From positions 310,001-374,000 of the forward strand of contig JAJXYY010000041.1 in the NCBI GenBank assembly GCA_021780315.1: a stretch of DNA of 64,000 bases. The letters run 5' to 3'. The notes beneath the pieces were generated by a model. The model did no database searches, was not told the origin of the DNA, and was given only the letters and a program-made list of their open reading frames with translations. The translations under genes were made by a program, and so were the position numbers. The DNA comes from Acidobacteriota bacterium (GTDB taxonomy: Bacteria > Acidobacteriota > Terriglobia > Terriglobales > Acidobacteriaceae). Below are positions 38,690 through 62,057 of the stretch, piece after piece; the first letter of the stretch is position 1, and each line of letters begins with the position of its first letter.

Positions 38690-38764
38690 GGGCGCATAAC
38701 TCAGCGGTAGAGTGCCACCTTCACACGGTGGAAGTCGTAGGTTCGAATCCTGCTGTGCCCACCA
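38690..38764 (+). tRNA. tRNA-Val, anticodon CAC
   Basis: A complete cloverleaf with an encoded CCA end. The acceptor GGGCGCA pairs with TGTGCCC (one G-U). The anticodon stem is CCACC/GGTGG with loop TTCACAC, so the anticodon is CAC, reading GUG. The T arm has TTCGAAT between GTAGG and CCTGC. A hairpin with a 9-base stem lies just downstream at 38784-38809. Confidence 0.95.
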
Positions 38765-49358: not shown

Positions 49359-49856
49359 TCAAGGCTGTGATTCTGTATCTGGCATGGCGAGATAAATGAG
49401 TACGATCCCTACGATGTTGAACATGCGAGCAGCAGCTTCTTGTCCATTCCAGGTTTTGGACTGCCACATCAGAAACCACTCAGCCCCAAGCGAGAGGAAT
49501 GCGATGAACCACATGAGCAGGCTGAGCGTTAGGGCAATTATTGCAAAGCGCTTTGCCGCGTTGTAGCTGGAGGCAGACGAGCGGAGGTTTTGTGCCAGAC
49601 GAAATGCACCGACAAAGCAGAGGATGGTGGTGAGCACCTCCCAGCAGATGATGGTGGCATAGAAGGCATGGTGGACCGTGGTGGAATTGATTGCTCTCCA
49701 CATACCGGCGTTGCCTGGAAAGGTGGAGTCCATCATGAGGACGTGGTGGACGAACTGATAGTTGGAGTTGTAGTCGCTGATATTGTTGAAGATGACGAGC
49801 AGGTAGAAGAAGCCAATGGCAAACAGCAGCAGGCACTTGGAGAGACGCACGGTCAT
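49359..49856 (-). CDS. DUF2165 small integral membrane protein
   Basis: 165 residues with about four membrane helices (about 8-25, 65-82, 105-125, 145-160). NNISDYNSNYQFVHHVLMMD and WRAINSTTVHHAFYATIICWEVLTT match the DUF2165 pattern with conserved His pairs facing the membrane. Function is unknown for the family. It starts 6 bases behind the cytochrome c gene, so the pair probably acts in one membrane process. Confidence 0.78.
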   Translation of the reverse strand: MTVRLSKCLLLFAIGFFYLLVIFNNISDYNSNYQFVHHVLMMDSTFPGNAGMWRAINSTTVHHAFYATIICWEVLTTILCFVGAFRLAQNLRSSASSYNAAKRFAIIALTLSLLMWFIAFLSLGAEWFLMWQSKTWNGQEAAARMFNIVGIVLIYLAMPDTESQP

Positions 49857-49862
49857 TGCAGG

Positions 49863-50762
49863 TTACTCCGATGGAAAGGCTTGGAAGTACGCTGTGATAG
49901 CTGCCAGTGTTGGCTGATCGTAGGTTGGATTGCCGGGCATGGTGGCCTTGGCATCGACTTTCTGCGGGTTGCGGACGTAGTCGGCGAATTCGACTGGATT
50001 CCGTCTAGCGATTGCAGCTATGTTTGACCAAGTACGACCGGATTTAGTGCCTCCTGCTGCGCCTTGATTGTGGCACCGAAGGCAGTTCTCCTTGGCGATG
50101 GCAAAGCCTTTCATTACAGGCGAATCCGACGCAAACTGGCCTGATGGAGTGATGGGGCCAAAGTGTTCGTTCTGGGTGCCAAAGTCTAATAGGAACATCT
50201 CTGTTGGTTCTTGAGGCATGTCCTGATGAGCAAGAATCTTGAATGAAGGTTTGAAGTCTAGGTATGTGATCAAGAATGGCCCCGGGTCTTCGTTTTTCGT
50301 TTGTTTGGCCCATTGGGACGTTGGTAGGCCGTTGATTTTCAGGACCAGTATGGGATGGTGGGCTGCGACGAACTCGGACGGCAACTGGGACTGATAGCGA
50401 TCGATGCAAAGCGCGGTTGTCATGTCGGAGTTGGCTAGAACCCCAATGATGTGCGCAAGCTCACTGAGTTCTACACCACTAACGTTGATCTTTGGCGCGT
50501 GAAGTTCACTGAAATTGACATCCTCGATGATGGTAGTTTCCACCTGCGGCAGCGACAGCAGGCTCTGATAGGGGATGAACCAGTGGGTAGTGGGAGAGAT
50601 GCCAGAGATCATACCGGTAACTTCGAGATCCGTAGTGCTGCGACGCTGAGGTTGAAGGAGCGGGGATCGTCTTCTGGGTTGGGTCGATCGTGCGTAGGAC
50701 AAGAGGCTGCCACAGAAAATAGCATGCAGAGCCAGCAGGCCGATGAGTCTTTTGCTTCCCAT
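49863..50762 (-). CDS. Exported cytochrome c protein with N-terminal oxidoreductase-like domain
   Basis: 299 residues from the ATG at 50762. A signal sequence (about 1-25) precedes a domain (about 45-200) with LEVTGMISGIS and INVSGVELSELAHIIG, which vaguely recalls the molybdopterin-binding fold of sulfite-oxidase-like proteins, and a C-terminal c-type heme domain. The heme motif is CLRCH; a distal Met ligand is plausible in ATMPGNPTY. It probably moves electrons in the periplasm. The molybdopterin idea is weak; the cytochrome call is strong. It is divergent from the RidA-like gene across 69 bases. Confidence 0.75.
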   Translation of the reverse strand: MGSKRLIGLLALHAIFCGSLLSYARSTQPRRRSPLLQPQRRSTTDLEVTGMISGISPTTHWFIPYQSLLSLPQVETTIIEDVNFSELHAPKINVSGVELSELAHIIGVLANSDMTTALCIDRYQSQLPSEFVAAHHPILVLKINGLPTSQWAKQTKNEDPGPFLITYLDFKPSFKILAHQDMPQEPTEMFLLDFGTQNEHFGPITPSGQFASDSPVMKGFAIAKENCLRCHNQGAAGGTKSGRTWSNIAAIARRNPVEFADYVRNPQKVDAKATMPGNPTYDQPTLAAITAYFQAFPSE

Positions 50763-50831
50763 ACGTAATGCTAACCGCAACAGTAGATTTAGCAAGCGAG
50801 AAAATCGACGGGCATGTTAGAGTACGGCCAC

Positions 50832-51296
50832 ATGGATATAGAATTGCGTCTCTCTGCATATGGTCATCATTTGCCCTCGCCACCAAACGCTGGTGGTAAT
50901 TATCTTTCAGCGAAACGGGTTGGAAATATGTTGTACCTTGCGGGCGTAATTTCGACCCAAGATGGCTCTGTGCTGACTGGTACTGTCGGAGCGGAGCGAA
51001 GTATCGAAGATGGTTATGCTGCGGCTGTTGCCTGCGCTTTAGCGCAATTGGCAGTGATTAAACACGAGTTAGGAACGCTGAATGCCGTGGAAAGTATCGT
51101 AGGTCTTAATGGTTATGTAAATGCGATTGCTGGCTTTGCTGATTCGCCCAAGGTGATCAACGGTGCTTCTGATCTGCTGGTTGCAGCGTTTGGCGATGCG
51201 GGGCGTCATGTGCGTGCGGCCGTGGGTGTGAACGCACTACCACGTAACGCGATGGTTGAGATCCAGATGACGGTGTTGGTGAAATCTGGGAATTGA
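50832..51296 (+). CDS. RidA/YjgF-family protein
   Basis: 154 residues from the ATG at 50832 (MDIELRL, as in related proteins); an ATG six codons upstream is possible. The family core shows PSPPNAGGNYLSAKRVGNMLYLAGVIS and the C-terminal VRAAVGVNALPRNAMVEIQM, where RidA enzymes keep the substrate-binding Arg. RidA proteins deaminate reactive enamines/imines, and paralogues serve in pyrimidine and related amide catabolism. It opens a plus-strand operon with a formamidase-type enzyme and an HpxZ-like protein, so a catabolic rather than housekeeping role is likely. Confidence 0.82.
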   Translation: MDIELRLSAYGHHLPSPPNAGGNYLSAKRVGNMLYLAGVISTQDGSVLTGTVGAERSIEDGYAAAVACALAQLAVIKHELGTLNAVESIVGLNGYVNAIAGFADSPKVINGASDLLVAAFGDAGRHVRAAVGVNALPRNAMVEIQMTVLVKSGN

Positions 51297-51341
51297 TTTG
51301 CCCAAACAGCTGCAGTCGACGAAAGAGAGGAGGTAAAAGCA

Positions 51342-52277
51342 ATGGCTGAATACAGTTTGCGTGCCGTTCCGACGCACTCGATTTGGGACAATCAACTTAG
51401 CCCACGGCTGGTTGTGTCATCTGGCGATGTTGTGCATCTGGAATGTGCTGATTCCAGCGGGGGGCAGGTGAAGCCGGGGATGGCGATGGCCGAGTTTCTC
51501 AACATTGATCGAAGTCTCATCCATGCGCTGACTGGGCCTATCTATGTCGAAAGTTCTGAACCCGGGGATGTGCTGGAGGTGCAGGTACTGGAAGTCGAGC
51601 ACATGGGTTGGGGATGGAGCAGTGTGATTTCAGGGCTTGGCTTTTTGGACCAACGCTTTACGGACCCTTATCTTTTTCATTGGAAGCTCGATGGTGAGGT
51701 GAGCCACTCCTTGTCTCCTGCGGTGGTTCCATTACGCCCGTTTTGCGGTGTTATGGGGGTTGCCCGGGCCGAAGCGGGTAAATTTCGGACGCGTCCTCCG
51801 GGGGAGTTTGGTGGCAATATGGACGTGCGTGAGCTATGCGCTGGATCGACTCTTTACCTGCCAGTGCAGGTAGTCGGCGCGCTCTTTTCTGCGGGAGATG
51901 CACATGCAGCGCAGGGGGATGGTGAAGTTTGCATCAATGGAATTGAGTGCCCTGCAACTGTGACGCTGCGCTTTGTGCTGCACCGACAGCAGAAGTTGGC
52001 GGGGCCGATGGTTGAGGTTGGGCATAACAGCATTGAGCCGTCGTCTGCTGCATGGCAGATAGTCGAGTCCGCTGAGGATGCGTTGAAAGCAGCACGTGCT
52101 GCTACATCACGCATGGTCGATTTGCTTATTCAGAATTGGGACTTTAAGCCTGTAGATGCTTATCTGTTGTGCAGTGTTGCCATGAACCTAAAGCTGAGCC
52201 AGGTTGTCAATCGACCGATGATTACGGTTAGCGCTTCAATTGCGAAGAGTATTGTTCCAACGCGGAGGCTGTTCTAA
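51342..52277 (+). CDS. Acetamidase/formamidase family hydrolase
   Basis: 311 residues with a strong AGGAGG ribosome site. The FmdA/AmdA fold shows VHLECADSSGGQ, TGPIYVESSEPGDVLEVQVLEVE, GGNMDVRELCAGSTLYLPV and GDAHAAQGDGEVC, the last being the family's catalytic region. Members hydrolyse formamide, acetamide or small amides to the acid and ammonia. Here it sits between RidA-like and HpxZ-like genes, and probably completes breakdown of a small amide released by the island's enzymes. The exact substrate is inferred. Confidence 0.88.
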   Translation: MAEYSLRAVPTHSIWDNQLSPRLVVSSGDVVHLECADSSGGQVKPGMAMAEFLNIDRSLIHALTGPIYVESSEPGDVLEVQVLEVEHMGWGWSSVISGLGFLDQRFTDPYLFHWKLDGEVSHSLSPAVVPLRPFCGVMGVARAEAGKFRTRPPGEFGGNMDVRELCAGSTLYLPVQVVGALFSAGDAHAAQGDGEVCINGIECPATVTLRFVLHRQQKLAGPMVEVGHNSIEPSSAAWQIVESAEDALKAARAATSRMVDLLIQNWDFKPVDAYLLCSVAMNLKLSQVVNRPMITVSASIAKSIVPTRRLF

Positions 52278-52279
52278 CT

Positions 52280-52669
52280 ATGGGAATTGAGATCAATGAT
52301 GCGGCTACGATAGCGGAGTTAGCCGAGCTGTATCCGAAGTATGAAGAGGCGCTGGTTACGAACGACTTGGCCACGCTGACTGCAATGTTTTGGTCTGCTC
52401 CCGAGGTGATGCGATTTGGTGTTTCGGAGAACCTGTATGGAATCGAAGAGCTTGAGGCGTTTCGTAGAGGACGCTCTCCGTTGAATCTGGCGCGCCGAGT
52501 AATACGCTTGGACATTGTTAGCTTCGGTAAAGACTTTGGGAGCATTACGCTGGAGTTTGAGCGCGAAAGCAACGGTAATACTGTTCATGGCCGTCAGAGC
52601 CAATCCTGGGTGCGTTTGCCGGAAGGGTGGCGCATCGTCGCAGCGCACGTTTCTCTACTGCCGGATTGA
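52280..52669 (+). CDS. HpxZ/AtzH-like (DUF3225) protein
   Basis: 129 residues starting 2 bases after the formamidase stop. It has the SnoaL/DUF3225 fold with NDLATLTAMFWSAPEVMRFGVSENLYGIEEL, RSPLNLARRV and WRIVAAHVSLLPD. HpxZ is in the oxalurate pathway of purine breakdown in Klebsiella, and AtzH is a helper enzyme beside the AtzE amidase in cyanuric acid use. The family partner is usually an AtzE-like amidase with a small AtzG/HpxX subunit. An amidase is encoded at 59.7 kb, but no small subunit was found. This is the best single clue to the island's chemistry. Confidence 0.82.
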   Translation: MGIEINDAATIAELAELYPKYEEALVTNDLATLTAMFWSAPEVMRFGVSENLYGIEELEAFRRGRSPLNLARRVIRLDIVSFGKDFGSITLEFERESNGNTVHGRQSQSWVRLPEGWRIVAAHVSLLPD

Positions 52670-52694
52670 TACGTCGCGGCATCGCGATCCAGAG

Positions 52695-53516
52695 TCAGGA
52701 GCAGACCCTAACAGTTAGTGGTGTAACAGGCGCTGCATGAAACTGGGCTTGTAGTTCCTCTGCGGAGGAGAAGATTTTGCTCTGAACATGCCGTGCGGGC
52801 AGGAGGAATTGAAGTTCTGGTTGGTGGAAGGGGTAGGGCGTTAGCTGGAAGTGGCGCTCACCCACAGACCGAACCGTAATTTCCTGCTGGCTGCCGTTGG
52901 TGAGTGGGAGCGGATGGAGCAGGTTCGCAGGATGGCGATAGTCAACGCAGGAGAGCAGAGAGAGATTGTCTGTTGCCTGGAGCAAGCGAAAGTGTTGCTG
53001 TATCCGTGGCCATGCGATTTCGTAGGGTGTGAGTGTGTTGTCGGCGGCGATGCTGTTGTGCAAATGCTGTTGTAATGACCGCTGGCGGCCAAGAAATTCA
53101 TCGAGTTGTGGCAGTTGCAGTGGGGAGATAGTTGAACGGTCAGCGCGTTCGGTCAGTAGATTGTAGGTATGTAGCGAGACGAGCAATGCTGCGTAAGGAT
53201 CCTCGGCTGCGACAACTTCTACGGCATGCTCTCGGACGGCGAGATAGTCGGCGAGGTCAATTTCTTCAAAAGCAGAGTATTTCCCGACAAGTTCAATTGA
53301 GAAGGCGGAGGGCAGGCCAGACTTGGTGATCTGCGGCATGGCATCGCGGACGGCCCAGCCGTCGTCGTGGGCGGAGATGCCCAGCAGTACCTGACGCCGC
53401 GGAGCAGGAGCGGCAAATTGCCCGTTGCCCCAATGCTCGGCAAAGGCTCCAGCGAGACGGGCGTGGTCAGAATGCGTGATAAGCCACCAACCAGTATCAG
53501 AGGCAAGGCGCAACAT
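52695..53516 (-). CDS. DUF3891 protein, last gene of the minus-strand catabolic operon
   Basis: 273 residues; AAGGA is about seven bases before the ATG. It matches DUF3891 with ITHSDHARLAGAFAEHWG at the start, LLGISAHDDGW and VSLHTYNLLTERAD further on. Repeated His-Asp pairs recall a metal-dependent HD-like active site, but this is not established. It follows the ABC permease by 49 bases, suggesting it takes part in the same pathway. It is a good candidate for an unassigned enzyme. Confidence 0.75.
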   Translation of the reverse strand: MLRLASDTGWWLITHSDHARLAGAFAEHWGNGQFAAPAPRRQVLLGISAHDDGWAVRDAMPQITKSGLPSAFSIELVGKYSAFEEIDLADYLAVREHAVEVVAAEDPYAALLVSLHTYNLLTERADRSTISPLQLPQLDEFLGRQRSLQQHLHNSIAADNTLTPYEIAWPRIQQHFRLLQATDNLSLLSCVDYRHPANLLHPLPLTNGSQQEITVRSVGERHFQLTPYPFHQPELQFLLPARHVQSKIFSSAEELQAQFHAAPVTPLTVRVCS

Positions 53517-53565
53517 GATGAATCCTTTCCAGTCCTGTGTTGACGGAGTTTGTTTGAGGCAGAGA

Positions 53566-54357
53566 CTACTGCGATTCTGTCTTGCGAGCCGACTCGTGCC
53601 AGTTATGTAAAAAGTAGTACTCCAGAAACATCACTGCGAAGAAAAATAAGAAGCCCAGTACTGATGCGGCTAAGACGAGTGCAAATAAGTAATCTGTTTG
53701 AAGTTGTGCGAGTGCATACGTGATTGAGTAACCCAAGCCACCTTGTCCTATAGAACTGGATCCGGCGAATAGCTCGCCGGTGATGGCTCCGATGACAGCA
53801 ATGCCGCTGGCGATACGTACACCGATAAACAGTGAAGGGAGCGCATGGGGGAGACGCAACTTCCAGAGAATCTGTGCCCCAGAGGCATTTTGCATAAGGA
53901 AGAGATTGACCATGTTCTCGTCGACACTTACGAGGCCTTGTGTGGTATTCGCGATGATGGGGGCAAGACAAATGATGAAAGTGATGAGGCTGACTGCAAA
54001 GAGTCCGGCACCGGCCCACATGATGATGAGTGGAGCGATGGCTACGATCGGTACGGTCTGTAGCAAGATGGTGTAGGGCAGAAGCATGCGGCGGAGCCAT
54101 TGGGATTGCGCAAAGATCAGGGCCACTGTCGTACCGATGAATATGCTGACGAGGAGGCCACTGGCAGCCGCTAGTGCGGTAATCCAGAACGAGTTTGTCA
54201 GGGAAGAGAAGCGATTGATGACTGTTTTCGCAACGGCGAACGGCGTAGGCAGCATATAAGCCGGAATGCTAAAGACCCAGATGAGCGTGCGCCAGAGCAC
54301 CAAGAGTGTGAGTAGTACACCCACGGCATTCAGTGCGTTATAGAAGATGCGCTTCAT
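53566..54357 (-). CDS. ABC transporter permease, SsuC/ThiX type
   Basis: 263 residues with six membrane helices and the inner-loop EAA-like motif GAITGELFAGSSSIGQGGLG. It belongs to the permeases that work with NMT1/THI5-type binding proteins for sulfonates, pyrimidine precursors and N-heterocycles. Its ATG overlaps the ATPase stop by four bases (ATGA). A matching binding lipoprotein is encoded in the divergent unit at 61.1 kb. It probably imports the compound broken down by the island. Confidence 0.88.
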   Translation of the reverse strand: MKRIFYNALNAVGVLLTLLVLWRTLIWVFSIPAYMLPTPFAVAKTVINRFSSLTNSFWITALAAASGLLVSIFIGTTVALIFAQSQWLRRMLLPYTILLQTVPIVAIAPLIIMWAGAGLFAVSLITFIICLAPIIANTTQGLVSVDENMVNLFLMQNASGAQILWKLRLPHALPSLFIGVRIASGIAVIGAITGELFAGSSSIGQGGLGYSITYALAQLQTDYLFALVLAASVLGFLFFFAVMFLEYYFLHNWHESARKTESQ

Positions 54358-55172
54358 TGGCTTTGCACTCCCCGCAGTGTCTTGCTGATAGTCGTTATGT
54401 AATCTTCGAATGCGGCGAGTTGTCGTGTAGCTTCAGTTCGAGGGTATGGTAGGTTAATGGGGATATCGTGAGCGATGCGACCGGGGTGGGGTGCCATGAT
54501 GAGTACACGTGTGGAGAGAAATACTGCTTCTGCCACAGAATGAGTTACAAATAGCGCCGTCCAGCCTTGTTCCTGCTGGAGTCGCAGAATTTCTTCGTTG
54601 AAGTGGTCGCGGGAGATCTCATCGAGAGCAGCAAATGGCTCGTCCATGAGCAATACACGAGGTTTTGTTGACATGGCACGAGCGATGGAGACCCGCATCT
54701 TCATCCCTCCGGAGAGCTGACGTGGATAGGACTTGGCTGCGTGGCTGAGGCCTACCAACTCCAATAGAGCAGCGACTTTTTCCTGACGTCGTTCGCGCGT
54801 GGTGTGCTCGAGTTCGAGTCGTAATCCGACGTTTTGTTCCACGGTGCGCCAAGGGAGAAGGGTTGCATCCTGAAAGATATACGAGACAATCTCTCTGGCA
54901 TTCGCTGGAGTCATGCCATCGATACAGATTTGGCCGGATGTGGGTGATGTAAGACCCGCGACTAGCTTGAGCATGGTTGACTTTCCGCAACCGGATGGAC
55001 CAATCAAGCTGACGAACTCACCTCGTTGTACGGACAAGTCGACGTGCTGAAGTACCTTTTGGGATGATTTTGCGGCTTTGTTGCCGTAAGACTTGGATAC
55101 GCCGGAGAAGGCAATTTCAGCCAACCCATTCGAGCGGGCGGGTAAGAGCGAGTTGAGGGTGTATGTGGTCAT
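54354..55172 (-). CDS. ABC transporter ATPase, SsuB/TauB type
   Basis: 272 residues from the ATG at 55172, whose ATGA overlap with the CocE stop decides the start. Walker A is GPSGCGKST (58-66), the signature is LSGGM, Walker B is RVLLMDEPFAALDE, and the switch His is in VTHSVAEAV. It powers the permease encoded next. Gene order ATPase-permease with a separate binding protein is typical of nitrate/sulfonate/taurine-type importers. Confidence 0.92.
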   Translation of the reverse strand: MTTYTLNSLLPARSNGLAEIAFSGVSKSYGNKAAKSSQKVLQHVDLSVQRGEFVSLIGPSGCGKSTMLKLVAGLTSPTSGQICIDGMTPANAREIVSYIFQDATLLPWRTVEQNVGLRLELEHTTRERRQEKVAALLELVGLSHAAKSYPRQLSGGMKMRVSIARAMSTKPRVLLMDEPFAALDEISRDHFNEEILRLQQEQGWTALFVTHSVAEAVFLSTRVLIMAPHPGRIAHDIPINLPYPRTEATRQLAAFEDYITTISKTLRGVQSQ

Positions 55173-56905
55173 GATTGCGGGGGAACCAGAGGGAGTCGCA
55201 GGTGGGAAGGATAGTGCAGGCCGTGCTGCAGCGTATGGGTGCAACGCTGCCAGGTCCAGGGATCTGCGAGTGATGGGGCGATATCGCTGGATGGATTGCG
55301 ATCATACAGCGGAAACGCTGAGCCTGCGATTTCGAGTCGAACCTGATCGCCAGCAGCAAAGATGCAGGACGTAGGCTCAAGGGTGAACGTCCATTTATTG
55401 ACTCTGTCGGGCGCATAGGTGGAGTTGCGGAAGAGGTAGCTGGAACGGACTATTCCCATCGTAATGAACTCGGCACGATTGTCTGGTGTAAGGCGGACAA
55501 GCTTGCCGGTCACATCTGCATTGCTTGCTGATGTTGCGCAGTAGAGGGTGAGCTCGACTGAACCGAAGACGTGGACCGGATCGAGCAGAGGAGCTGAGGT
55601 AAAGACGAGGAGGTTGTTGCCTTGCTCCATGACAGACTGATCGAAGGGGCCACTGAGGGCGGTATTGCCGCCGGGTGCGAAGACAGGAACCTCGGGATCA
55701 TAGACGAAGTAATCCGCTGGTTGCATATCGGAGGGAGGTTCTATGATCAAGGTGCCATCACCTTTGGATGAGTTTGCGCGGCCATCGCTGGAGAGGTAGA
55801 GCGTGATGGACTCCGTGCTGGTCAGGACATCCGTGGTGAACCAGCGGCTTGCCAAGGGCTGGATATCTCCGAGTGCGAAGTGACGAATACGCGGCTCAGT
55901 TGCGAACTCGTTTGAGTCTTTGAGCCAGTGGTTAAACCAGCGTAGCAGTAGGGCATCGGTGTCCATTGCAGCATCAGGGCCGAGGTTTGCGTCGCCTATA
56001 CGCGAACCCCATGGGATGTGTTGCCAGGGGCCGGCAAGGAGGTACTGGTTCTGGCGTGCGAAGGGTGTTGCTGCATGGCGAGCAAGTGCGAGAAATCCAT
56101 CGTAGCTTCCCTGGAGGTATGTGTCGTACCAGCCGAGGACGTGCAGTGCAGGGACATTGATTTGGGCGAGCGAGGTGCTGACGTCGAGTGCTGACCAGAA
56201 CTTGCCCGGCTCCGTATGCTCAAACCAATCTTGAACGTAGGTAGGCAGGCTGGAGGACTGCAGCGCGGGAAGCTTGGCGTAAGGGGCAAAGTGAGGCTGG
56301 AGGCGTAGGTTAGCCCAAGCGGCTTCAAGTTGTTCATGGGCCTGATGCAGCCCAAGTCGACGGGCATCGGAGCGGAGCATCTGGAGTCCCCAGCCCATGG
56401 CCGACGACAGCCTGAGTGCGCCGTGATGATAGAACCAACCGTGGTAGAGGTCGCATGCGGTCATGGCCGGAGCTATGCATAGAAGTCCTTCAGGTTGTTC
56501 GGCTGCGGCCAGTAGTTGGGTTGCCCCCTGGTAGGAGAAGCCGTACATGCCAAACTTCCCATTGGACTCAGGTCTGGATCTTAGCCATCGGATGGTCTCG
56601 GCTCCGTCGTGACGCTCGTATCGGAAGGGATAGAACTCGCCCTCCGAGTCGCCGCGTCCACGTACATCCTGAATGACGACGTTGTAACCGTGACGTGCGA
56701 ACCAGACCGGATGGGGATAGACAACGGTGGAGGCAATATCTCTGCCATAGGGTTGGCGCATGAGCAGGGTTGGACTGGTAGCGCCTGAGGATGCTGGTGG
56801 GTAGTAGTGATCGGAGTAGAGCGTACAGCCGTCAGACATGCGACAGGGTACGTGTCGTTGTAGACGGACTCCGGAGCCGCACTCGATGAGGAATGTACTG
56901 GTCAA
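55169..56905 (-). CDS. CocE/NonD-family alpha/beta hydrolase
   Basis: 578 residues from a TTG whose TTGA overlaps the creatininase stop. The X-Pro dipeptidyl-peptidase-like core has the nucleophile Ser124 in YGFSYQG, RGRGDSEGEFYPF, and a later Asp-His pair; the C-terminal domain is the PepX beta-sandwich. Relatives cleave esters and amides such as cocaine and acylated amino acids. Its coupling to both the creatininase and transporter genes suggests it trims an acylated or esterified substrate. No signal peptide is visible, so it acts inside the cell. Confidence 0.85.
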   Translation of the reverse strand: MTSTFLIECGSGVRLQRHVPCRMSDGCTLYSDHYYPPASSGATSPTLLMRQPYGRDIASTVVYPHPVWFARHGYNVVIQDVRGRGDSEGEFYPFRYERHDGAETIRWLRSRPESNGKFGMYGFSYQGATQLLAAAEQPEGLLCIAPAMTACDLYHGWFYHHGALRLSSAMGWGLQMLRSDARRLGLHQAHEQLEAAWANLRLQPHFAPYAKLPALQSSSLPTYVQDWFEHTEPGKFWSALDVSTSLAQINVPALHVLGWYDTYLQGSYDGFLALARHAATPFARQNQYLLAGPWQHIPWGSRIGDANLGPDAAMDTDALLLRWFNHWLKDSNEFATEPRIRHFALGDIQPLASRWFTTDVLTSTESITLYLSSDGRANSSKGDGTLIIEPPSDMQPADYFVYDPEVPVFAPGGNTALSGPFDQSVMEQGNNLLVFTSAPLLDPVHVFGSVELTLYCATSASNADVTGKLVRLTPDNRAEFITMGIVRSSYLFRNSTYAPDRVNKWTFTLEPTSCIFAAGDQVRLEIAGSAFPLYDRNPSSDIAPSLADPWTWQRCTHTLQHGLHYPSHLRLPLVPPQS

Positions 56906-57696
56906 GGCTCAAGCCCATGGGTGAAGTGGAACATTTCGGTAAGGGCTGCGGCTACTTTCTCTGCGGACTGCTTGACCCATCTTGCCCCGTTTTCCGCAGT
57001 AGCTGGATTGGGATCACCCATAACGCCACTTGGAGCGATGTCGCGCGTCAGCCAAGCAAAGGTTGCGGGACCATTTTCCGGGAGCAAAGCATGGGGTTGG
57101 TCAATCTGGGCTATGTAGTTCACGGTGTAGTGCTCGGGATGAACCAGTTCGGGAGTGCCATGTAACAGCAAGGCTGTCTCGTACTCCCCAGCGTGAAATC
57201 CATAGGCTCTTTCCTGGGGTGAGATGTCCTCGAATCTTGCACCACCAGAGCCGGAGAGATAGAAGGTGTGCAGGCCAAACTCAGCACGTAGATCTCGGCA
57301 CATGACATCGTCGAGTGAGGTATTGCCACCGTGAGTGTTGTACAAAACAAGTCTCTTAAAACCTGATGCTGCAACGCTGGCACCGATGTCGTGAACCACA
57401 GCCATGAAGGTAGAGGCGGAGACGGAGAGGGTTCCGGGAAAGCCAATGTGTTCGTTACTTTTCCCGTAGCAGATTGGTGGCAACGCATAGACGGGCAGTT
57501 CTTTTGGCAGCAAGGCCAAGGCGTAGCCCAACAGTAAATTGCTAATAAGTGTGTCGGTCGCAAGCGGCAGGTGATGACCGTGTTGTTCAATTGCTGCAGT
57601 GGGGAGGATGAGTAGTGTCTCTTCCCTGGGAAGAGCGTCTACCTGCTTCCAGGTCAGGTAGGCGAAGTTGCGATTATCCGGGATCCATGTCTTCAT
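56902..57696 (-). CDS. Creatininase-family amidohydrolase
   Basis: 264 residues starting directly after the FAD oxidoreductase stop. The metal-binding residues are visible: Glu37, His39 and Asp48 in EQHGHHLPLATD, His122 in NTHGGN, and His168 with Glu171 in HAGEYETA. The family opens cyclic amides (creatinine to creatine) but also includes formylaminopyrimidine deformylases and others. In this context it probably opens a ring or removes a formyl group. The family is sure; the creatinine substrate is not. Confidence 0.88.
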   Translation of the reverse strand: MKTWIPDNRNFAYLTWKQVDALPREETLLILPTAAIEQHGHHLPLATDTLISNLLLGYALALLPKELPVYALPPICYGKSNEHIGFPGTLSVSASTFMAVVHDIGASVAASGFKRLVLYNTHGGNTSLDDVMCRDLRAEFGLHTFYLSGSGGARFEDISPQERAYGFHAGEYETALLLHGTPELVHPEHYTVNYIAQIDQPHALLPENGPATFAWLTRDIAPSGVMGDPNPATAENGARWVKQSAEKVAAALTEMFHFTHGLEP

Positions 57697-59067
57697 CTAG
57701 TGTGCATCCTCTTCCCTTTGGTAGCTAGCCATCTTGCCAGGGTTCAACAATCCTTTGGGATCGTACTTCCGCTTGGCTTTAAGTTGAATGTGATCCTGTC
57801 GGTAACGACCTCCGCCTTCGACGTGGTTGACGTGCGGATTGGCGACACTTACTCCAATCTCACGACAGAAATCGATCATCTCGTTCAACCGTTCGGCGGT
57901 AGAGAAGCGCACAACGGGAATTGATCCTGGAACTACGATATGGTCACTGTTCTTCATGAACTCGATGTGCAGCAAAAAGTCGTCCCCGTAGCGAGCCTTG
58001 AGTTGAGAGAACTGAGTGCGAGCAGTTACTGGATTGAATCCGCATTGAAGATAAGTGAGGGCATTGTCGGACTTCATGGCCCAAAGCGTGGTGTGGTTCC
58101 AGGTGTAGTCGGAGAGCAGGGGAGAAGTGCGCAGGCCGTCGTACAGAGCAGCAAAAGTAACTTCTCCATCTCTATCTTTTGCGGTTTGTTGCAACTCGTC
58201 CAGTTGTGATGCGGCAATCATGAAAAAGATATGAGCTTTCCCCGATGCGATGATGCTACGAATGGGAGTGAAACTGGCTGCAATGTGCGATTCGAACGTG
58301 GTGACTAACCGTTTTGTCCAGTGGTTGGAGATCGCTATCTGCTCGCTGAAATCGTAGGCTTCGTTGAAGGAAGGGAAGGCAACAACACATTGAGCCCACG
58401 TCACTGCAGGGGTCAGGGAGAGCCAGATACGCGAGATGATTCCGTTGGTGCCCCAGGCATGCAGGATATCGTGGATCGCGTCGCCTTCGTGTTTGATGAT
58501 CTGGGGCACAGCTTCCATGGTGATGACTTCGAGAGCGCGTACGGTGTTGAAGTCGCGCAGGCCACCGTGCGCAACCGATCCGATGCCGCCTGATCCACCA
58601 CCTAGAAAACCTCCTACCGAAGCTTTGGCGACGGTTGAGGGATAGCAGCGCAACTCCCATCCATGACGGCGGGCCTCATTCTCGATGGTGCCCAGTTTTG
58701 CTCCTGGCTGGCAGATCGCGACTCCGTCGGGATGAATGGATTCGACTGTGTCCATCAGGGTAAGGTCCAGAACGACGCCTCCTTGCAGCGGTATGGCCTG
58801 TCCATAGTTGCCGGTACCAGCGCCTCGTGCCGTCACGGCAACTCCGGTGGCATGGCATAGTCGCAGGATGGCACAGATCTCCTCTACGCTAATTGGCTGC
58901 ACGACTACGTCGCCGACCTTGTCCGAGAGGAGTTCCTTCAAAACGGGCGAATACCAATAGAAGTCACGGGACAAGCGGGATACGGTTGCCGGGTTCGTCA
59001 GGACTCTTTCTGGGTCGCAAATGATTTCCTTGAGATGGTCGACTAGGGACATGTGGATGGAGGTCAC
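57697..59067 (-). CDS. FAD-binding (VAO/PCMH-type) oxidoreductase
   Basis: 456 residues from a GTG overlapping the deaminase stop (GTGA); an ATG five codons later is possible. The FAD domain shows ARGAGTGNYGQAIPLQGGVVLDL and GGFLGGGSGGIGSVAHGGLRDF; the C-terminal cap has HIEFMKNSDHIVVPGS. Relatives include GlcD-type dehydrogenases and amine or sugar oxidases. No histidine for a covalent flavin is clear. It likely oxidises the deaminated intermediate before ring opening. No electron-acceptor partner is nearby. Confidence 0.85.
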   Translation of the reverse strand: MTSIHMSLVDHLKEIICDPERVLTNPATVSRLSRDFYWYSPVLKELLSDKVGDVVVQPISVEEICAILRLCHATGVAVTARGAGTGNYGQAIPLQGGVVLDLTLMDTVESIHPDGVAICQPGAKLGTIENEARRHGWELRCYPSTVAKASVGGFLGGGSGGIGSVAHGGLRDFNTVRALEVITMEAVPQIIKHEGDAIHDILHAWGTNGIISRIWLSLTPAVTWAQCVVAFPSFNEAYDFSEQIAISNHWTKRLVTTFESHIAASFTPIRSIIASGKAHIFFMIAASQLDELQQTAKDRDGEVTFAALYDGLRTSPLLSDYTWNHTTLWAMKSDNALTYLQCGFNPVTARTQFSQLKARYGDDFLLHIEFMKNSDHIVVPGSIPVVRFSTAERLNEMIDFCREIGVSVANPHVNHVEGGGRYRQDHIQLKAKRKYDPKGLLNPGKMASYQREEDAH

Positions 59068-59630
59068 GTTGTGGCTCGCTTTCCATGGTTGGAGACACTT
59101 TTGGGTCGACTGCTATTGCTCCAGCCTTTGAAGGCTCTCAGCATGTTGGGATGAGTGAATAGGCTGTAGGCGAGATCGCGTTCGACTGGACCGACGACCT
59201 CACAGGCCATGTCGCTTCGTTCGACGATTTCAGTTGCTGCAATATGGATTTGACGGCAGTGTCGACTGGCATCGTCGATGGTCGCGCCGTAGACGATGCG
59301 GTCTATTCCTGCCCAGAGCAGATTGGCCATACACATCGGGCAGGGTTCGCAAGTGGAGTACATGGTGTATCCGCGGAGGGAGGGGGACATGAGCTTTTTG
59401 CAGGCCAAGCGAACTGCGCGGACCTCAGCATGACTGCTGGGATCGTTCTCTTTGGCGACTGCATTTAGTGCCTTGACGAGCAGTTTGCCGGTCTTAGTTT
59501 GGACGATCATAGCGCCGAAGGGCAAAGGTCGTTCGGTGGCCATCGTGCGCGCCGTGAAATGCACGATCTCTGCCAAGCGAGAGCTGTCTAATGCCGTAAG
59601 GCTCGGCTTTTTCTCTCTAGTGTTCCCCAT
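59064..59630 (-). CDS. Guanine-deaminase-like nucleobase deaminase
   Basis: 188 residues from the ATG at 59630; a GTG five codons upstream is less likely. The zinc site is intact: His67-Ala-Glu69 in SHAEVRAV and Cys97/Cys100 in CEPCPMC. The surrounding NDPSSHAEV and TMYSTCEPCPMC are close to bacterial GuaD. Such enzymes deaminate guanine, cytosine or related heterocycles to release ammonia. It opens the seven-gene operon, consistent with the first step after import. The exact base is unknown. Confidence 0.85.
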   Translation of the reverse strand: MGNTREKKPSLTALDSSRLAEIVHFTARTMATERPLPFGAMIVQTKTGKLLVKALNAVAKENDPSSHAEVRAVRLACKKLMSPSLRGYTMYSTCEPCPMCMANLLWAGIDRIVYGATIDDASRHCRQIHIAATEIVERSDMACEVVGPVERDLAYSLFTHPNMLRAFKGWSNSSRPKSVSNHGKRATT

Positions 59631-59729
59631 GTCGAAATGTAACACGACATGTCAGATTCGCTAAACACGAAATTGCTTCACGATGAGGCATGAAGCTTTT
59701 CTGGCTGATGCAGCCCTTAGAATTCAGGT
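59631..59729. promoter_or_regulatory. Divergent promoter region with inverted repeats, catabolic island
   Basis: The only non-coding space (99 bases) between the deaminase operon and the amidase gene, so both promoters lie here. It holds an inverted repeat GCTTCA-N10-TGAAGC at 59675-59696 and a palindrome GACATGTC at 59646-59653. Either could be the operator of an unlinked regulator. No -10/-35 is clear. Confidence 0.5.
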
Positions 59730-61037
59730 ATGCACAACGCGATGTCGCCTCTGGACGAGATACGGAAACGGCTGACCTTAGACACAGAAGCGATCACCGA
59801 GGTCGTTAACGAAGCCTTGAGCCATTCCAACAGCAATATTGGACAGAATGTATTTCTGTGGCAACAACGTGAACGTACCCAAAGGGAAGCAAGGAAGGTG
59901 GTGGATGTAGGAGCGATTCCGCGACTGCCACTGCTTGGTGTACCTGTATCGATCAAGGATTGCATTGAGGTCGAAGGCTATGTGAGTAGTTGCGGCTCGC
60001 ATTTCTACGCCGAGAATAATGCTGCTGCTTGCCGTGATGCTTGGATAGTTCAGCAGGTGCGCGCTGCAGGGGGAGTGATTACAGGGAAGACGCACATGCA
60101 CCAACTGGCGTACGGAATAACGGGAGAGAATGCGGACTTTGGGGACTGCTGTCAGCCACTCGATGCCTCGTTGCTCACAGGGGGGTCTTCCAGCGGAGCC
60201 GTTGCCAGTGTGCAGGAAGGCTCGGCGATATTGGCGATCGGCACCGATACCGGTGGGTCAATTCGGGTGCCTTCAGCGCTATGTGGTGTGGTGGGCTTTC
60301 GCTCGTCCGTGGGGGTTGGGAGTTGGACGGGTGGCGTGCATCTGGCTCGGTCGTTCGATACGTTAGGTCTTTTGTGTCGAGATCTGCGCGATTTACCGTT
60401 GTTCGCTTCGGCTGTGCTGGGCATTGAATCTGTAGAGTGTTCAGGAGAGCCCAAGGCCCCACGGATTGCAATAGTGCCTACGGAGTTTCTCTACGATTGC
60501 GATGCAGATGTAGTTGCTGCTTATGCCATGCAGCAACAGGAATTGGAACAGTTGGGAGCTACCCTTACTACCGTGAATGTTGAGTACTGGGCCCGTGCGA
60601 TGGACGTTTTTGGTCCAATTCAGGCACATGAGGCTGCGGGAGTTCAACGCGAACAGCTGGCTGGACGGGCTGGATTTGAAGTGTTTGAGCCTGCTATCGC
60701 GGATCGATTAACCTGGGGCGAAAGCATTTCTGCAAAGGAAATTGAGTTGCTTCGTAGGTGGCATCACGAATTTCAGGTCTCTATGGACACTATGCTGCAG
60801 CAACATGATTTTTTACTACTTCCATGTGCGCCTATGTCGCAGTTGCTGGCCGGTGCTGACCACTCGAAGACCCGACAGAAGATTCTGCGGTACACCACGC
60901 CGGTGAGTCTGGCAGGATTACCTGCAGTTAGCCTGCCACGCCCCGGCGGGATTGGAATGCAGCTAGTTTGCGGACGAGGACGGGATGCTGAACTGTTGGC
61001 GTATGCTTCAGTTCTTCATGGAAAGATTTCTGGGTAA
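59730..61037 (+). CDS. Amidase-signature-family hydrolase (AtzE-like)
   Basis: 435 residues. The Ser-cisSer-Lys triad is present: Lys76 in VSIKDC, Ser153-155 in TGGSSSGAV and nucleophile Ser177 in GTDTGGSIRVPSALCG. In AtzE/HpxY-type enzymes this core hydrolyses carboxybiuret or oxalurate-type amides with a small partner subunit. Such a partner is not encoded nearby, though an HpxZ/AtzH-like protein is at 52.3 kb. It starts at 59730 (or an ATG four codons later). It should release ammonia from a linear ureide or amide intermediate. Confidence 0.88.
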   Translation: MHNAMSPLDEIRKRLTLDTEAITEVVNEALSHSNSNIGQNVFLWQQRERTQREARKVVDVGAIPRLPLLGVPVSIKDCIEVEGYVSSCGSHFYAENNAAACRDAWIVQQVRAAGGVITGKTHMHQLAYGITGENADFGDCCQPLDASLLTGGSSSGAVASVQEGSAILAIGTDTGGSIRVPSALCGVVGFRSSVGVGSWTGGVHLARSFDTLGLLCRDLRDLPLFASAVLGIESVECSGEPKAPRIAIVPTEFLYDCDADVVAAYAMQQQELEQLGATLTTVNVEYWARAMDVFGPIQAHEAAGVQREQLAGRAGFEVFEPAIADRLTWGESISAKEIELLRRWHHEFQVSMDTMLQQHDFLLLPCAPMSQLLAGADHSKTRQKILRYTTPVSLAGLPAVSLPRPGGIGMQLVCGRGRDAELLAYASVLHGKISG

Positions 61038-61067
61038 ACTTGTGCCCAGAATGCTAGGCTGCTGAGC

Positions 61068-62057
61068 ATGGATCGTTTTTTCAAGATGTCCGCAGGAATT
61101 GTTGTGCTGCTGGTTGCGGCTACATTGTTGAATGGCTGCAAACACAGAGCTGCCAGCGGGTTGGTTTCAGTCAAACTGCAAACCGATTGGTATCCACAGC
61201 CCGAGCACGGTGGGTTCTACACGGCTCTGGTGAAGGGCTACTACAAGGATGCAGGGCTGGATGTGCAAATTCTACCCGGCAGCCCCTACATTACGGGTGA
61301 GCAGTTGGTATCGGCGGGCTCGGTTCAGTTTTCCATGGGGTCTTCCGACCGGATGATTGAGGCGGTCGCAGGCGGTCAGCGGCTGCTTGCAGTGGGTGCG
61401 ACCATGCAGCATGACCCACAGGCCGTGATGGTTCACGCGGCGTCTCCTGTTCATGATTTTGCAGATTTGAATGGGCACGCAATATCCGTTAGGCCTCCGG
61501 CCACGTGGTTCGAGTACATTGTGAAGCGATTTGGTTTGAAGGATGTTCGCGAGGTTCCCGCGACTTATAGTGTGGCCAATTTCATCAAGGATCCCCAGTA
61601 TATTCAACAGATCTTCGTGACGTCGGAGCCCTACTATGTAAAGAAGGCCGGTGTGCCATTACGGACGCTGCTGATTAGCGAGACCGGTTACGACCCATAC
61701 CGAGTTTTCTTTACGTCACGCGACTTTGCGCAGACCCATCCGGAGGTAGTGGCAAAGTTTGTGCAAGCGTCTATTCGCGGCTGGCATGATTACCTTCAAG
61801 ATCCCAAGCCCGCAAACGACCTTATCCGTAAGCTGAACCCTGCCATGGATCCCGAGTTGATGCAGTTCAGCTTTGAGGCATTGCGGGACGGACACTTTAT
61901 TGACGGCTCTGCACCGCCGGGCAGAATTGGTGATGAGTTGGGGCGGTTCGATCCCCAACGTTGGGCAGCGATGTCCCGACAGCTATCCGAGTTGCAGTTG
62001 GTGAACAAGCCTGTCGATCCCTCGACTGTGTACACCACGCAGTTTCAGAGCAAGTAA
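61068..62057 (+). CDS. NMT1/THI5-type substrate-binding lipoprotein
   Basis: 329 residues. The lipobox ends LNGC near residue 24. The mature protein starts VSVKLQTDWYPQPEHGGFYTAL, the pattern of NMT1/THI5 proteins that bind pyrimidine precursors, riboflavin parts and other N-heterocycles. GSPYITGEQLVSAGSVQFSMGSSDRM follows. It starts 30 bases behind the amidase gene. The permease and ATPase are in the divergent operon, so importer genes are split across the shared promoter. Likely ligand: a flat N-heterocycle or amide; HMP thiamine precursor is an alternative, but no thiamine gene is near. Confidence 0.88.
   Translation: MDRFFKMSAGIVVLLVAATLLNGCKHRAASGLVSVKLQTDWYPQPEHGGFYTALVKGYYKDAGLDVQILPGSPYITGEQLVSAGSVQFSMGSSDRMIEAVAGGQRLLAVGATMQHDPQAVMVHAASPVHDFADLNGHAISVRPPATWFEYIVKRFGLKDVREVPATYSVANFIKDPQYIQQIFVTSEPYYVKKAGVPLRTLLISETGYDPYRVFFTSRDFAQTHPEVVAKFVQASIRGWHDYLQDPKPANDLIRKLNPAMDPELMQFSFEALRDGHFIDGSAPPGRIGDELGRFDPQRWAAMSRQLSELQLVNKPVDPSTVYTTQFQSK

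What the first reader, a model, noticed from the sequence alone, without database searches (positions are those of the whole stretch)
50832..62057. Probable undescribed catabolic island for an N-rich heterocycle or ureide
Seen: a seven-gene minus operon (deaminase, VAO-type FAD oxidoreductase, creatininase-family, CocE/NonD hydrolase, ABC ATPase, ABC permease, DUF3891) faces an amidase plus NMT1-type binding lipoprotein and converges on RidA-like, formamidase-type and HpxZ/AtzH-like genes. Known: each family acts on amides, ureides or nucleobases. Inferred: import, deamination, oxidation, ring opening and amide hydrolysis to ammonia form one pathway. I know no described cluster with this exact set, and no regulator is encoded in it.
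Basis: partly seen in the sequence, partly recalled or inferred. Interest (0 to 1): 0.82.

Follow-up and report, generated by a model that had tools for sequence, protein, structure and literature searches.

The report
Acidobacterial pterin-ring breakdown gene cluster
A soil Acidobacterium carries a tightly conserved set of about fourteen genes that most likely imports and dismantles pterin-type rings (the ring part of the vitamin folate), with a different deaminase and extra enzymes compared with the related gene set of other bacteria; the substrate still has to be shown by experiment.

Summary
The genes are as described, with intact catalytic motifs, and are not a chance neighbourhood. In 38 related loci of the same class the run deaminase, FAD oxidoreductase, creatininase, CocE, ABC ATPase, permease, DUF3891 recurs in one order (one reduced case). 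A second block (formamidase family and RidA, usually with AtzH, cytochrome c and DUF2165) was found in 29 of 38; 8 of the other 9 run into a contig end. The substrate clue is the FAD enzyme: its best solved relative (41% identity) is titled 'flavin oxygenase ... involved in folate catabolism', and that enzyme's closer relatives sit on proteobacterial plasmids with the same creatininase, ABC importer and RidA types and an amidohydrolase deaminase. I read the cluster as a new variant of a pterin/folate catabolic module: a guanine-deaminase-like enzyme replaces the amidohydrolase, and CocE, DUF3891, AtzH, formamidase, amidase and cytochrome are added. DUF3891 keeps an HD-type ligand pattern. Not shown: substrate, order of steps, any activity. 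Confidence in pteridine catabolism 0.6; interest 0.6.

The parts
49359..49856 (-). DUF2165, predicted small membrane protein
   Evidence: PF09933 5e-60; beside cytochrome/RidA in relatives
49863..50795 (-). cytochrome c protein, about 310 aa with a CxxCH motif near the C-terminus (start codon uncertain)
   Evidence: PF13442 3e-6; C238, C241, H242 invariant in 9 rows
50814..51296 (+). RidA/YjgF-type protein
   Evidence: PF14588 1e-19; solved kin 3d01 1e-24, 9bk9 7e-21
51342..52277 (+). acetamidase/formamidase-family protein
   Evidence: PF03069 6e-51; far below the NCBIfam formamidase cut-off (108 of 500 bits)
52280..52669 (+). AtzH/HpxZ-like protein
   Evidence: PF11533 9e-48; over the HpxZ cut-off (145 of 135 bits); AtzH structure 6bjt 8e-35
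52695..53516 (-). DUF3891, probable HD-type metalloprotein
   Evidence: PF13030 8e-44; H18, H50, D51, H116, D183 invariant in distant relatives
53566..54357 (-). ABC importer permease
   Evidence: PF00528 1e-23
54354..55244 (-). ABC importer ATPase (true start probably downstream of the listed TTG)
   Evidence: PF00005 4e-36
55169..56905 (-). CocE/NonD serine hydrolase
   Evidence: TIGR00976 3e-108; S124, D261, H296 invariant in 15 rows
56902..57696 (-). creatininase-family amidohydrolase
   Evidence: PF02633 2e-66; below creatininase and MftE cut-offs; E37, H39, D48, H122, E173 invariant in 15 rows
57697..59067 (-). FAD oxygenase/oxidoreductase related to 6v42
   Evidence: PF01565 2e-27; 6v42 1.5e-98; Foldseek rank 1
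59064..59645 (-). cytidine-deaminase-fold deaminase, guanine-deaminase-like
   Evidence: PF00383 7e-21; 1tiy guanine deaminase 1.5e-18; H72, E74, C102, C105 invariant in 17 rows
59730..61037 (+). amidase
   Evidence: PF01425 4e-67; K76, S153, S177 invariant in 11 rows
61068..62057 (+). NMT1/THI5-type substrate-binding protein with an invariant Cys24 (probable lipoprotein)
   Evidence: PF09084 4e-35; solved kin 4nmy 1e-14, 3ix1 formylaminopyrimidine-binding protein 3e-8, THI5 6e-8; C24 invariant in 15 rows

Best explanation
An operon-like catabolic locus for pteridines (pterin or lumazine-type rings, as set free from folate, pteroate or biopterin). Proposed flow: an outer-membrane receptor (next to the cluster in some relatives, not here), the NMT1-type binding protein and the ABC importer bring the compound in. 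The guanine-deaminase-like enzyme removes the 2-amino group; guanine and pterin share the same 2-amino-4-oxopyrimidine half. The FAD oxygenase oxygenates the ring. The creatininase-family enzyme hydrolyses a ring amide; CocE and the amidase hydrolyse further amide or ester bonds; RidA hydrolyses imine or enamine products. AtzH (decarboxylating carbamate-type intermediates) and the formamidase-family enzyme finish ureide or formamide remnants to ammonia and CO2. DUF3891 is probably an HD-type metal hydrolase or oxygenase with an unassigned step. Cytochrome c/DUF2165 may pass electrons at the membrane. Shown here: gene set, conserved order, co-occurrence, intact motifs, kinship of the FAD enzyme. 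Inferred: substrate, order of steps, every single reaction.
For: FAD enzyme: 6v42 at 1.5e-98, next 6e-14; title 'flavin oxygenase with cofactor bound involved in folate catabolism'. 6v42 is 64-66% identical to the Rhizobium and Agrobacterium plasmid enzymes and groups with them. In 11 plasmid loci read (of 141 records): creatininase family, ABC ATPase and permease, RidA-type protein in 11; NMT1-type protein in 10 (one of them weak, 22%); amidohydrolase deaminase in 10. A 399-aa amidohydrolase of Variovorax F1 deaminates folate and pteroate, with a conserved endoribonuclease gene downstream in V. paradoxus (PMC9513972, sections read); the Pantoea locus has a 399-aa amidohydrolase followed by RidA. 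Best-named solved kin of the binding protein bind pyrimidines. Conservation and co-occurrence.
Against: Only 41% identity to 6v42 (38-45% across the acidobacterial branch); a substrate shift is possible. The deaminase is of another superfamily and none of the 11 plasmid loci has it. The paper behind 6v42 was not found, so its exact reaction is unknown to me. The proteobacterial amidohydrolases could not be compared with Arad3529 or the Variovorax enzyme; their best solved kin are cytosine deaminases. No pterin or folate riboswitch reached the Rfam threshold. No flavin reductase gene is in the set, whereas 5 of the 11 plasmid loci show one homologous to the Rhizobium NAD(P)H-dependent oxidoreductase.
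Confidence: 0.6

Rival explanations
1. Same machine, different substrate: another compound with an aminopyrimidine part (guanine or oxidised guanine, a deazapurine, a flavin or thiamine breakdown product) is imported, deaminated and opened by the same enzyme types.
For: Deaminase nearest to guanine deaminase; binding protein nearest to thiamine-pyrimidine binders among named kin; acidobacterial FAD enzymes form their own branch.
Against: Closest characterised FAD enzyme is from folate catabolism and its relatives share the importer, creatininase and RidA types; no xanthine dehydrogenase or uricase gene among the fourteen genes.
Confidence: 0.27
2. A cyanuric-acid, oxalurate or allantoin type ureide pathway built around AtzH and the amidase.
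For: AtzH keeps Y21, R45 and R72, matching Tyr22, Arg46 and Arg73 of AtzH; it passes the HpxZ cut-off; the genome has an allophanate hydrolase over its cut-off on another contig, as does 1 of 14 control genomes.
Against: The amidase is far below the AtzE cut-off (187 of 426 bits); no cyanuric acid hydrolase or allantoinase family was found among the fourteen genes; the deaminase, FAD enzyme and creatininase run is the more constant part of the set.
Confidence: 0.07
3. A biosynthetic cluster (a pteridine-type or peptide-derived cofactor or natural product).
For: The creatininase family includes MftE (126 bits, below its cut-off of 172); FAD and Rid-type enzymes also occur in biosynthesis (recalled).
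Against: ABC importer with binding protein, an outer-membrane receptor in 11 relatives, several hydrolases, and no scaffold-building enzyme family among the fourteen genes.
Confidence: 0.04
4. Unrelated genes that happen to be neighbours.
For: DUF3891 as a Pfam family (36 of 100 family genomes) and the formamidase-type gene (G097) also occur without the FAD enzyme.
Against: Order kept in 38 loci; deaminase orthologue in exactly the 6 FAD-positive genomes of 100 (8e-10 if genomes were independent draws, which they are not); the second block moves as a unit, in G083 about 120 kb away.
Confidence: 0.02

Closest known systems
Proteobacterial clusters around 6v42-type FAD oxygenases (folate catabolism by the title of 6v42)
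   Same: FAD oxygenase (35-41% identical to the window's), creatininase family, ABC ATPase and permease, usually an NMT1-type binding protein, RidA-type protein, and a deaminase
   Different: Deaminase is an amidohydrolase there and a cytidine-deaminase fold here; RidA is not detectably similar by BLAST at 1e-4; CocE, DUF3891, AtzH, formamidase, amidase, cytochrome c and DUF2165 are absent from all 11 loci read; several have LysR regulators and flavin reductases
Amidohydrolase pterin deaminases (Arad3529, Variovorax F1 PDA; PMC9513972)
   Same: Proposed reaction: removal of the 2-amino group of pterins
   Different: Other superfamily; activity of the window's enzyme untested
Guanine deaminase (1tiy, 1wkq)
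   Same: Cytidine-deaminase fold and zinc motif; the NDPxxHAE stretch aligns
   Different: Alignment is mainly over residues 42-128; genomic partners differ
AtzH of the cyanuric acid operon (PMC6219798) and HpxZ
   Same: Full-length similarity and the pocket residues Tyr22, Arg46, Arg73
   Different: Partners differ: no AtzE over its cut-off

Membership tests
6v42-type FAD oxygenase | Full-length similarity well above other VAO-type enzymes | tested here: met
   1.5e-98 against 6e-14 for the next; Foldseek 2.8e-38 against 7e-21
6v42-type FAD oxygenase | Same clade as the solved folate enzyme | tested here: inconclusive
   Acidobacterial enzymes are a separate branch (SH-aLRT 100) from the one holding 6v42; quick tree, long branches
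6v42-type FAD oxygenase | Acts on a folate-derived pteridine | not testable with these tools
   Needs enzyme assay
Proteobacterial folate/pterin module | FAD enzyme, creatininase family, ABC importer and RidA-type protein together | tested here: met
   Window genes; 11 of 11 plasmid loci
Proteobacterial folate/pterin module | Amidohydrolase-type deaminase | tested here: not met
   The cluster's deaminase is PF00383; the amidohydrolase query matched no cluster gene in the 38 loci
Guanine deaminase / TadA | NCBIfam TadA cut-off | tested here: not met
   52.9 of 150 bits
Guanine deaminase / TadA | Zinc and proton-shuttle residues | tested here: met
   H72, E74, C102, C105 invariant in 17 rows (roles recalled)
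Creatininase proper and MftE | NCBIfam cut-offs | tested here: not met
   95 of 235 and 126 of 172 bits
Formamidase FmdA | NCBIfam cut-off | tested here: not met
   108 of 500 bits
HpxZ / AtzH | NCBIfam HpxZ cut-off and AtzH pocket residues | tested here: met
   145.3 of 135 bits; Y21, R45, R72
HpxZ / AtzH | AtzG/AtzE-type partners | tested here: not met
   Amidase 187 of 426 bits for AtzE; a small AtzG gene was not looked for
HD-domain metalloenzyme (DUF3891) | H...HD...D metal ligands in an HD fold | tested here: inconclusive
   H18, H50-D51, H116, D183 invariant in 10 distinct proteins, five of them 18-24% identical to the window's; no confident fold match, GppA only rank 5 with probability 0.20; no second Pfam family of note

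The most novel reading that the evidence does not exclude
A complete, self-contained pathway for mineralising the pteridine ring of folate-type compounds in soil Acidobacteria. It would hold a new, cytidine-deaminase-fold class of pterin deaminase, a first function for DUF3891 as an HD-type metalloenzyme acting on the opened ring, an AtzH-type decarboxylation near the end, and a cytochrome c/DUF2165 electron outlet. It would give genes to ring-breaking steps of pteridine degradation for which I found no gene set in print in the library searched.
Probability: 0.35. Interest if true: 0.78.

Novelty: new variant of a known kind. Interest (0 to 1): 0.6.

Why it matters
How soil microbes break the pteridine ring of folates is poorly known: the 2022 Variovorax study identified products up to the deaminated forms and says that the later steps remain unclear (PMC9513972, parts read). 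A conserved gene set of about fourteen, one member tied by structure to folate catabolism, would give named, testable genes for the rest of the route, a candidate second class of pterin deaminase, and a context for DUF3891 (the library holds no paper that names it). Pterin conjugates also form from sulfonamides in sludge, where the pterin deaminase went undetected (PMC9686132, passages).

Tried and rejected
Rejected: chance neighbourhood. Rejected: mobile island (no mobility gene among the larger genes scanned; GC change starts outside). Rejected: transfer to Gammaproteobacteria suggested by the label 'Rhodanobacteraceae' of L013; the class of its genome (G382) contains genomes of the window's family (G485 has a match at the same contig place as G083), so the label is probably wrong. 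Rejected as family names: creatininase proper, MftE, FmdA, AtzE, TadA, by curated cut-offs.

Led nowhere: Rfam scan at gathering thresholds (only the tRNA); fold match for DUF3891 and a lax Pfam scan of its 11 aligned members; paper searches for 6v42/6v43 (none), DUF3891 (none), a folate flavoenzyme paper (none found in the listings), Arad3529 (only PMC9513972), creatininase with folate or pterin clusters (15 of 35 papers listed, none by title or abstract start describing this set). Fan et al. 2013 on Arad3529 is not held; I saw only its title in a reference list. The Rhizobium amidohydrolase could not be compared with Arad3529 or the Variovorax enzyme.

L099 and L100 have near-identical FAD enzymes (296 of 300 end residues) and are both counted. 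Of 141 plasmid records with the FAD enzyme, 11 neighbourhoods were read, picked for variety. One search used the loci L009-L024 only (9 to 17 rows a family).
Full report
What is there. The window (G000:C39, 310001-374000) holds at 49359-62057 fourteen genes in four runs: cytochrome c-DUF2165 (minus), RidA-formamidase family-AtzH (plus), deaminase-FAD enzyme-creatininase-CocE-ATPase-permease-DUF3891 (minus), and amidase-NMT1-type protein (plus). Gaps of -4, 0, -4 and -4 bases in the seven-gene run suggest one transcript. Expected catalytic residues are present and invariant in the relatives aligned (9-17 rows a family, loci L009-L024): deaminase H72, E74, C102, C105; creatininase family E37, H39, D48, H122, E173; CocE S124, D261, H296; amidase K76, S153, S177; AtzH Y21, R45, R72; cytochrome C238, C241, H242; NMT1-type protein C24 (roles are recalled, except AtzH).

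Conservation. One scan of named genomes gave 11 loci. A search of 100 genomes of the family (own included) found the FAD enzyme in 6, of 297 of the phylum in 6, all in the window's family, and of 399 of the class of L013's genome in 30. Thirty-eight loci from 38 genomes, window not counted, were charted: FAD enzyme 38, deaminase 37, creatininase 37, CocE, ATPase and permease 35 each, NMT1-type 35, DUF3891 33, amidase 24, formamidase family and RidA 20 each, DUF2165 19, AtzH 18, cytochrome 12. The seven-gene order is kept in these (in L093 and L015 the raw stop-to-stop frames only shift the printed order). Several absences are contig ends; L109 is a true reduced case that keeps deaminase, FAD enzyme, creatininase and DUF3891 but lacks CocE, ATPase and permease.

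The second block. In 11 of the 38 loci an outer-membrane beta-barrel protein lies by the cluster; two scanned match PF25183, one also CarboxypepD_reg. I read on beyond it where contig was left. In 7 such loci formamidase family, RidA, cytochrome and DUF2165 follow, with AtzH recognised in 5 (L127-L133); likewise in G067, with all five (L125). In G083 the five-gene block sits about 120 kb away on the same contig (L126). That makes 29 of 38 with the formamidase/RidA pair (20 + 7 + 1 + 1). Of the other nine, eight (L014, L015, L021, L024, L087, L094, L101, L105) run into a contig end; L109 lacks it within the stretch read. The window has no protein similar to that receptor; the barrel family itself is common, with 44 matches in the genome, some of them pieces of one gene.

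Co-occurrence. In the same 100 genomes the deaminase orthologue (E at most 4e-66) is in exactly the six FAD-positive genomes; a seventh hit is at 5e-27. The formamidase-type orthologue is in six: four FAD-positive; G020, whose 8.4-kb contig shows the second block, DUF3891, permease, ATPase and part of CocE; and G097, which has it with an amidase and no other cluster gene in 18 kb. Two FAD-positive genomes (G036, G087) lack it; both are incomplete (76 and 73%) and their clusters end at contig edges. DUF3891 as a Pfam family is in 36 of 100, so only its subfamily is tied to the cluster.

What it works on. The FAD enzyme has one outstanding solved relative, 6v42/6v43 (1.5e-98; next 6e-14). Foldseek with its AF2 model (mean pLDDT 78) prints the title of 6v42: 'Crystal structure of the flavin oxygenase with cofactor bound involved in folate catabolism'. 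Relatives on plasmids (141 records) were read in 11 cases. All 11 have creatininase-family, ATPase, permease and RidA-type genes, 10 an NMT1-type match (L029 only 22% identical) and 10 an amidohydrolase deaminase. None matches the window's deaminase, CocE, DUF3891, AtzH, formamidase family, amidase, cytochrome or DUF2165 at 1e-4; the window's RidA is not matched either, the plasmid ones being of another subfamily. In a quick ML tree of 52 rows 6v42 groups with the Rhizobium and Agrobacterium enzymes (64-66% identity); the window's is 41% identical to it, and the acidobacterial rows form one separate branch. Three long branches warn against reading the inner order.

Deaminase swap. The proteobacterial deaminase is an amidohydrolase, with cytosine deaminases as nearest solved kin. 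Variovorax F1 pterin deaminase (399 aa, 37% identical to Arad3529) was shown to deaminate folate and pteroate, and an endoribonuclease gene is conserved downstream in V. paradoxus (PMC9513972: abstract, introduction, section 8 and one discussion passage seen). The Pantoea locus has a 399-aa amidohydrolase followed by RidA; this likeness is circumstantial. In the Acidobacteria a cytidine-deaminase-fold enzyme, nearest solved kin guanine deaminase, takes the place. Guanine and pterin share the 2-amino-4-oxopyrimidine half, so the swap is chemically plausible (inference). A lone FAD-enzyme copy (L022) also has a PF00383 deaminase just upstream.

Later steps. AtzH matches the cyanuric-acid enzyme (8e-35) and keeps its pocket residues, anchored by the Arg73Lys chain in the alignment; that enzyme is reported as a decarboxylating 1,3-dicarboxyurea amidohydrolase (PMC6219798: abstract and passages seen). 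With the amidase and formamidase family this suggests ureide and formamide remnants (inference). The genome has an allophanate hydrolase over its cut-off on another contig, beside a 1204-aa frame that by eye looks like urea carboxylase. DUF3891 models well (mean pLDDT 92) but matches no solved fold (best E 0.37). Its H18, H50-D51, H116 and D183 are invariant in 10 distinct proteins, five of them 18-24% identical, the spacing type of HD metalloenzymes (recalled).

Verdict. The likeliest substrate class is pteridines; the cluster is a new variant of a known but thinly described module. Against it stand the 41% identity, the unseen paper behind 6v42, the missing flavin reductase and the many added genes, which may mean another ring. 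Nothing here measures an activity.

Noticed in passing
L020:15465-19313 and ten other loci: An outer-membrane beta-barrel receptor-like protein (PF25183) lies next to the cluster in 11 of 38 loci, between DUF3891 and the second block in those read further; probably the import gate in those genomes.
   Followed up: partly
window 52695-53516; L036-L045: DUF3891 keeps H18, H50-D51, H116 and D183 even in 18-24% identical relatives, an HD-type metal-ligand pattern.
   Followed up: partly
L022:1907-4120 (G083:C1): A lone FAD-enzyme copy with a PF00383 deaminase just upstream, away from the rest of the cluster, in a genome that also has the full cluster.
   Followed up: partly
L030 (Klebsiella pneumoniae record) and L031 (Pantoea): A compact module of LysR, PDR/VanB oxidoreductase, amidohydrolase, RidA, creatininase family, binding protein, ABC and FAD oxygenase, by kinship perhaps pterin catabolism too.
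   Followed up: partly
L013 (CAJCHN010000108.1): Record titled Rhodanobacteraceae, but the class of its genome holds genomes of the window's family; probably a wrong label.
   Followed up: partly
L109 (G497:C9): A reduced cluster: deaminase, FAD enzyme, creatininase and DUF3891 without CocE, ATPase and permease, so DUF3891 stays with the enzymes rather than the transporter.
   Followed up: partly
L095:1-3736: Molybdenum hydroxylase genes, 38-52% identical to those beside the Rhizobium cluster, about 3.6 kb from the binding-protein gene.
   Followed up: no
window 1-38000: Strong positive GC skew (0.25-0.44 in most 2-kb steps up to 38 kb) that drops with GC content after about 38 kb, near a tRNA-Val gene at 38690.
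   Followed up: no
L144 (G000:C28:97000-114000): Allophanate hydrolase next to a 1204-aa frame that by eye looks like urea carboxylase, a possible sink for urea-type products.
   Followed up: partly
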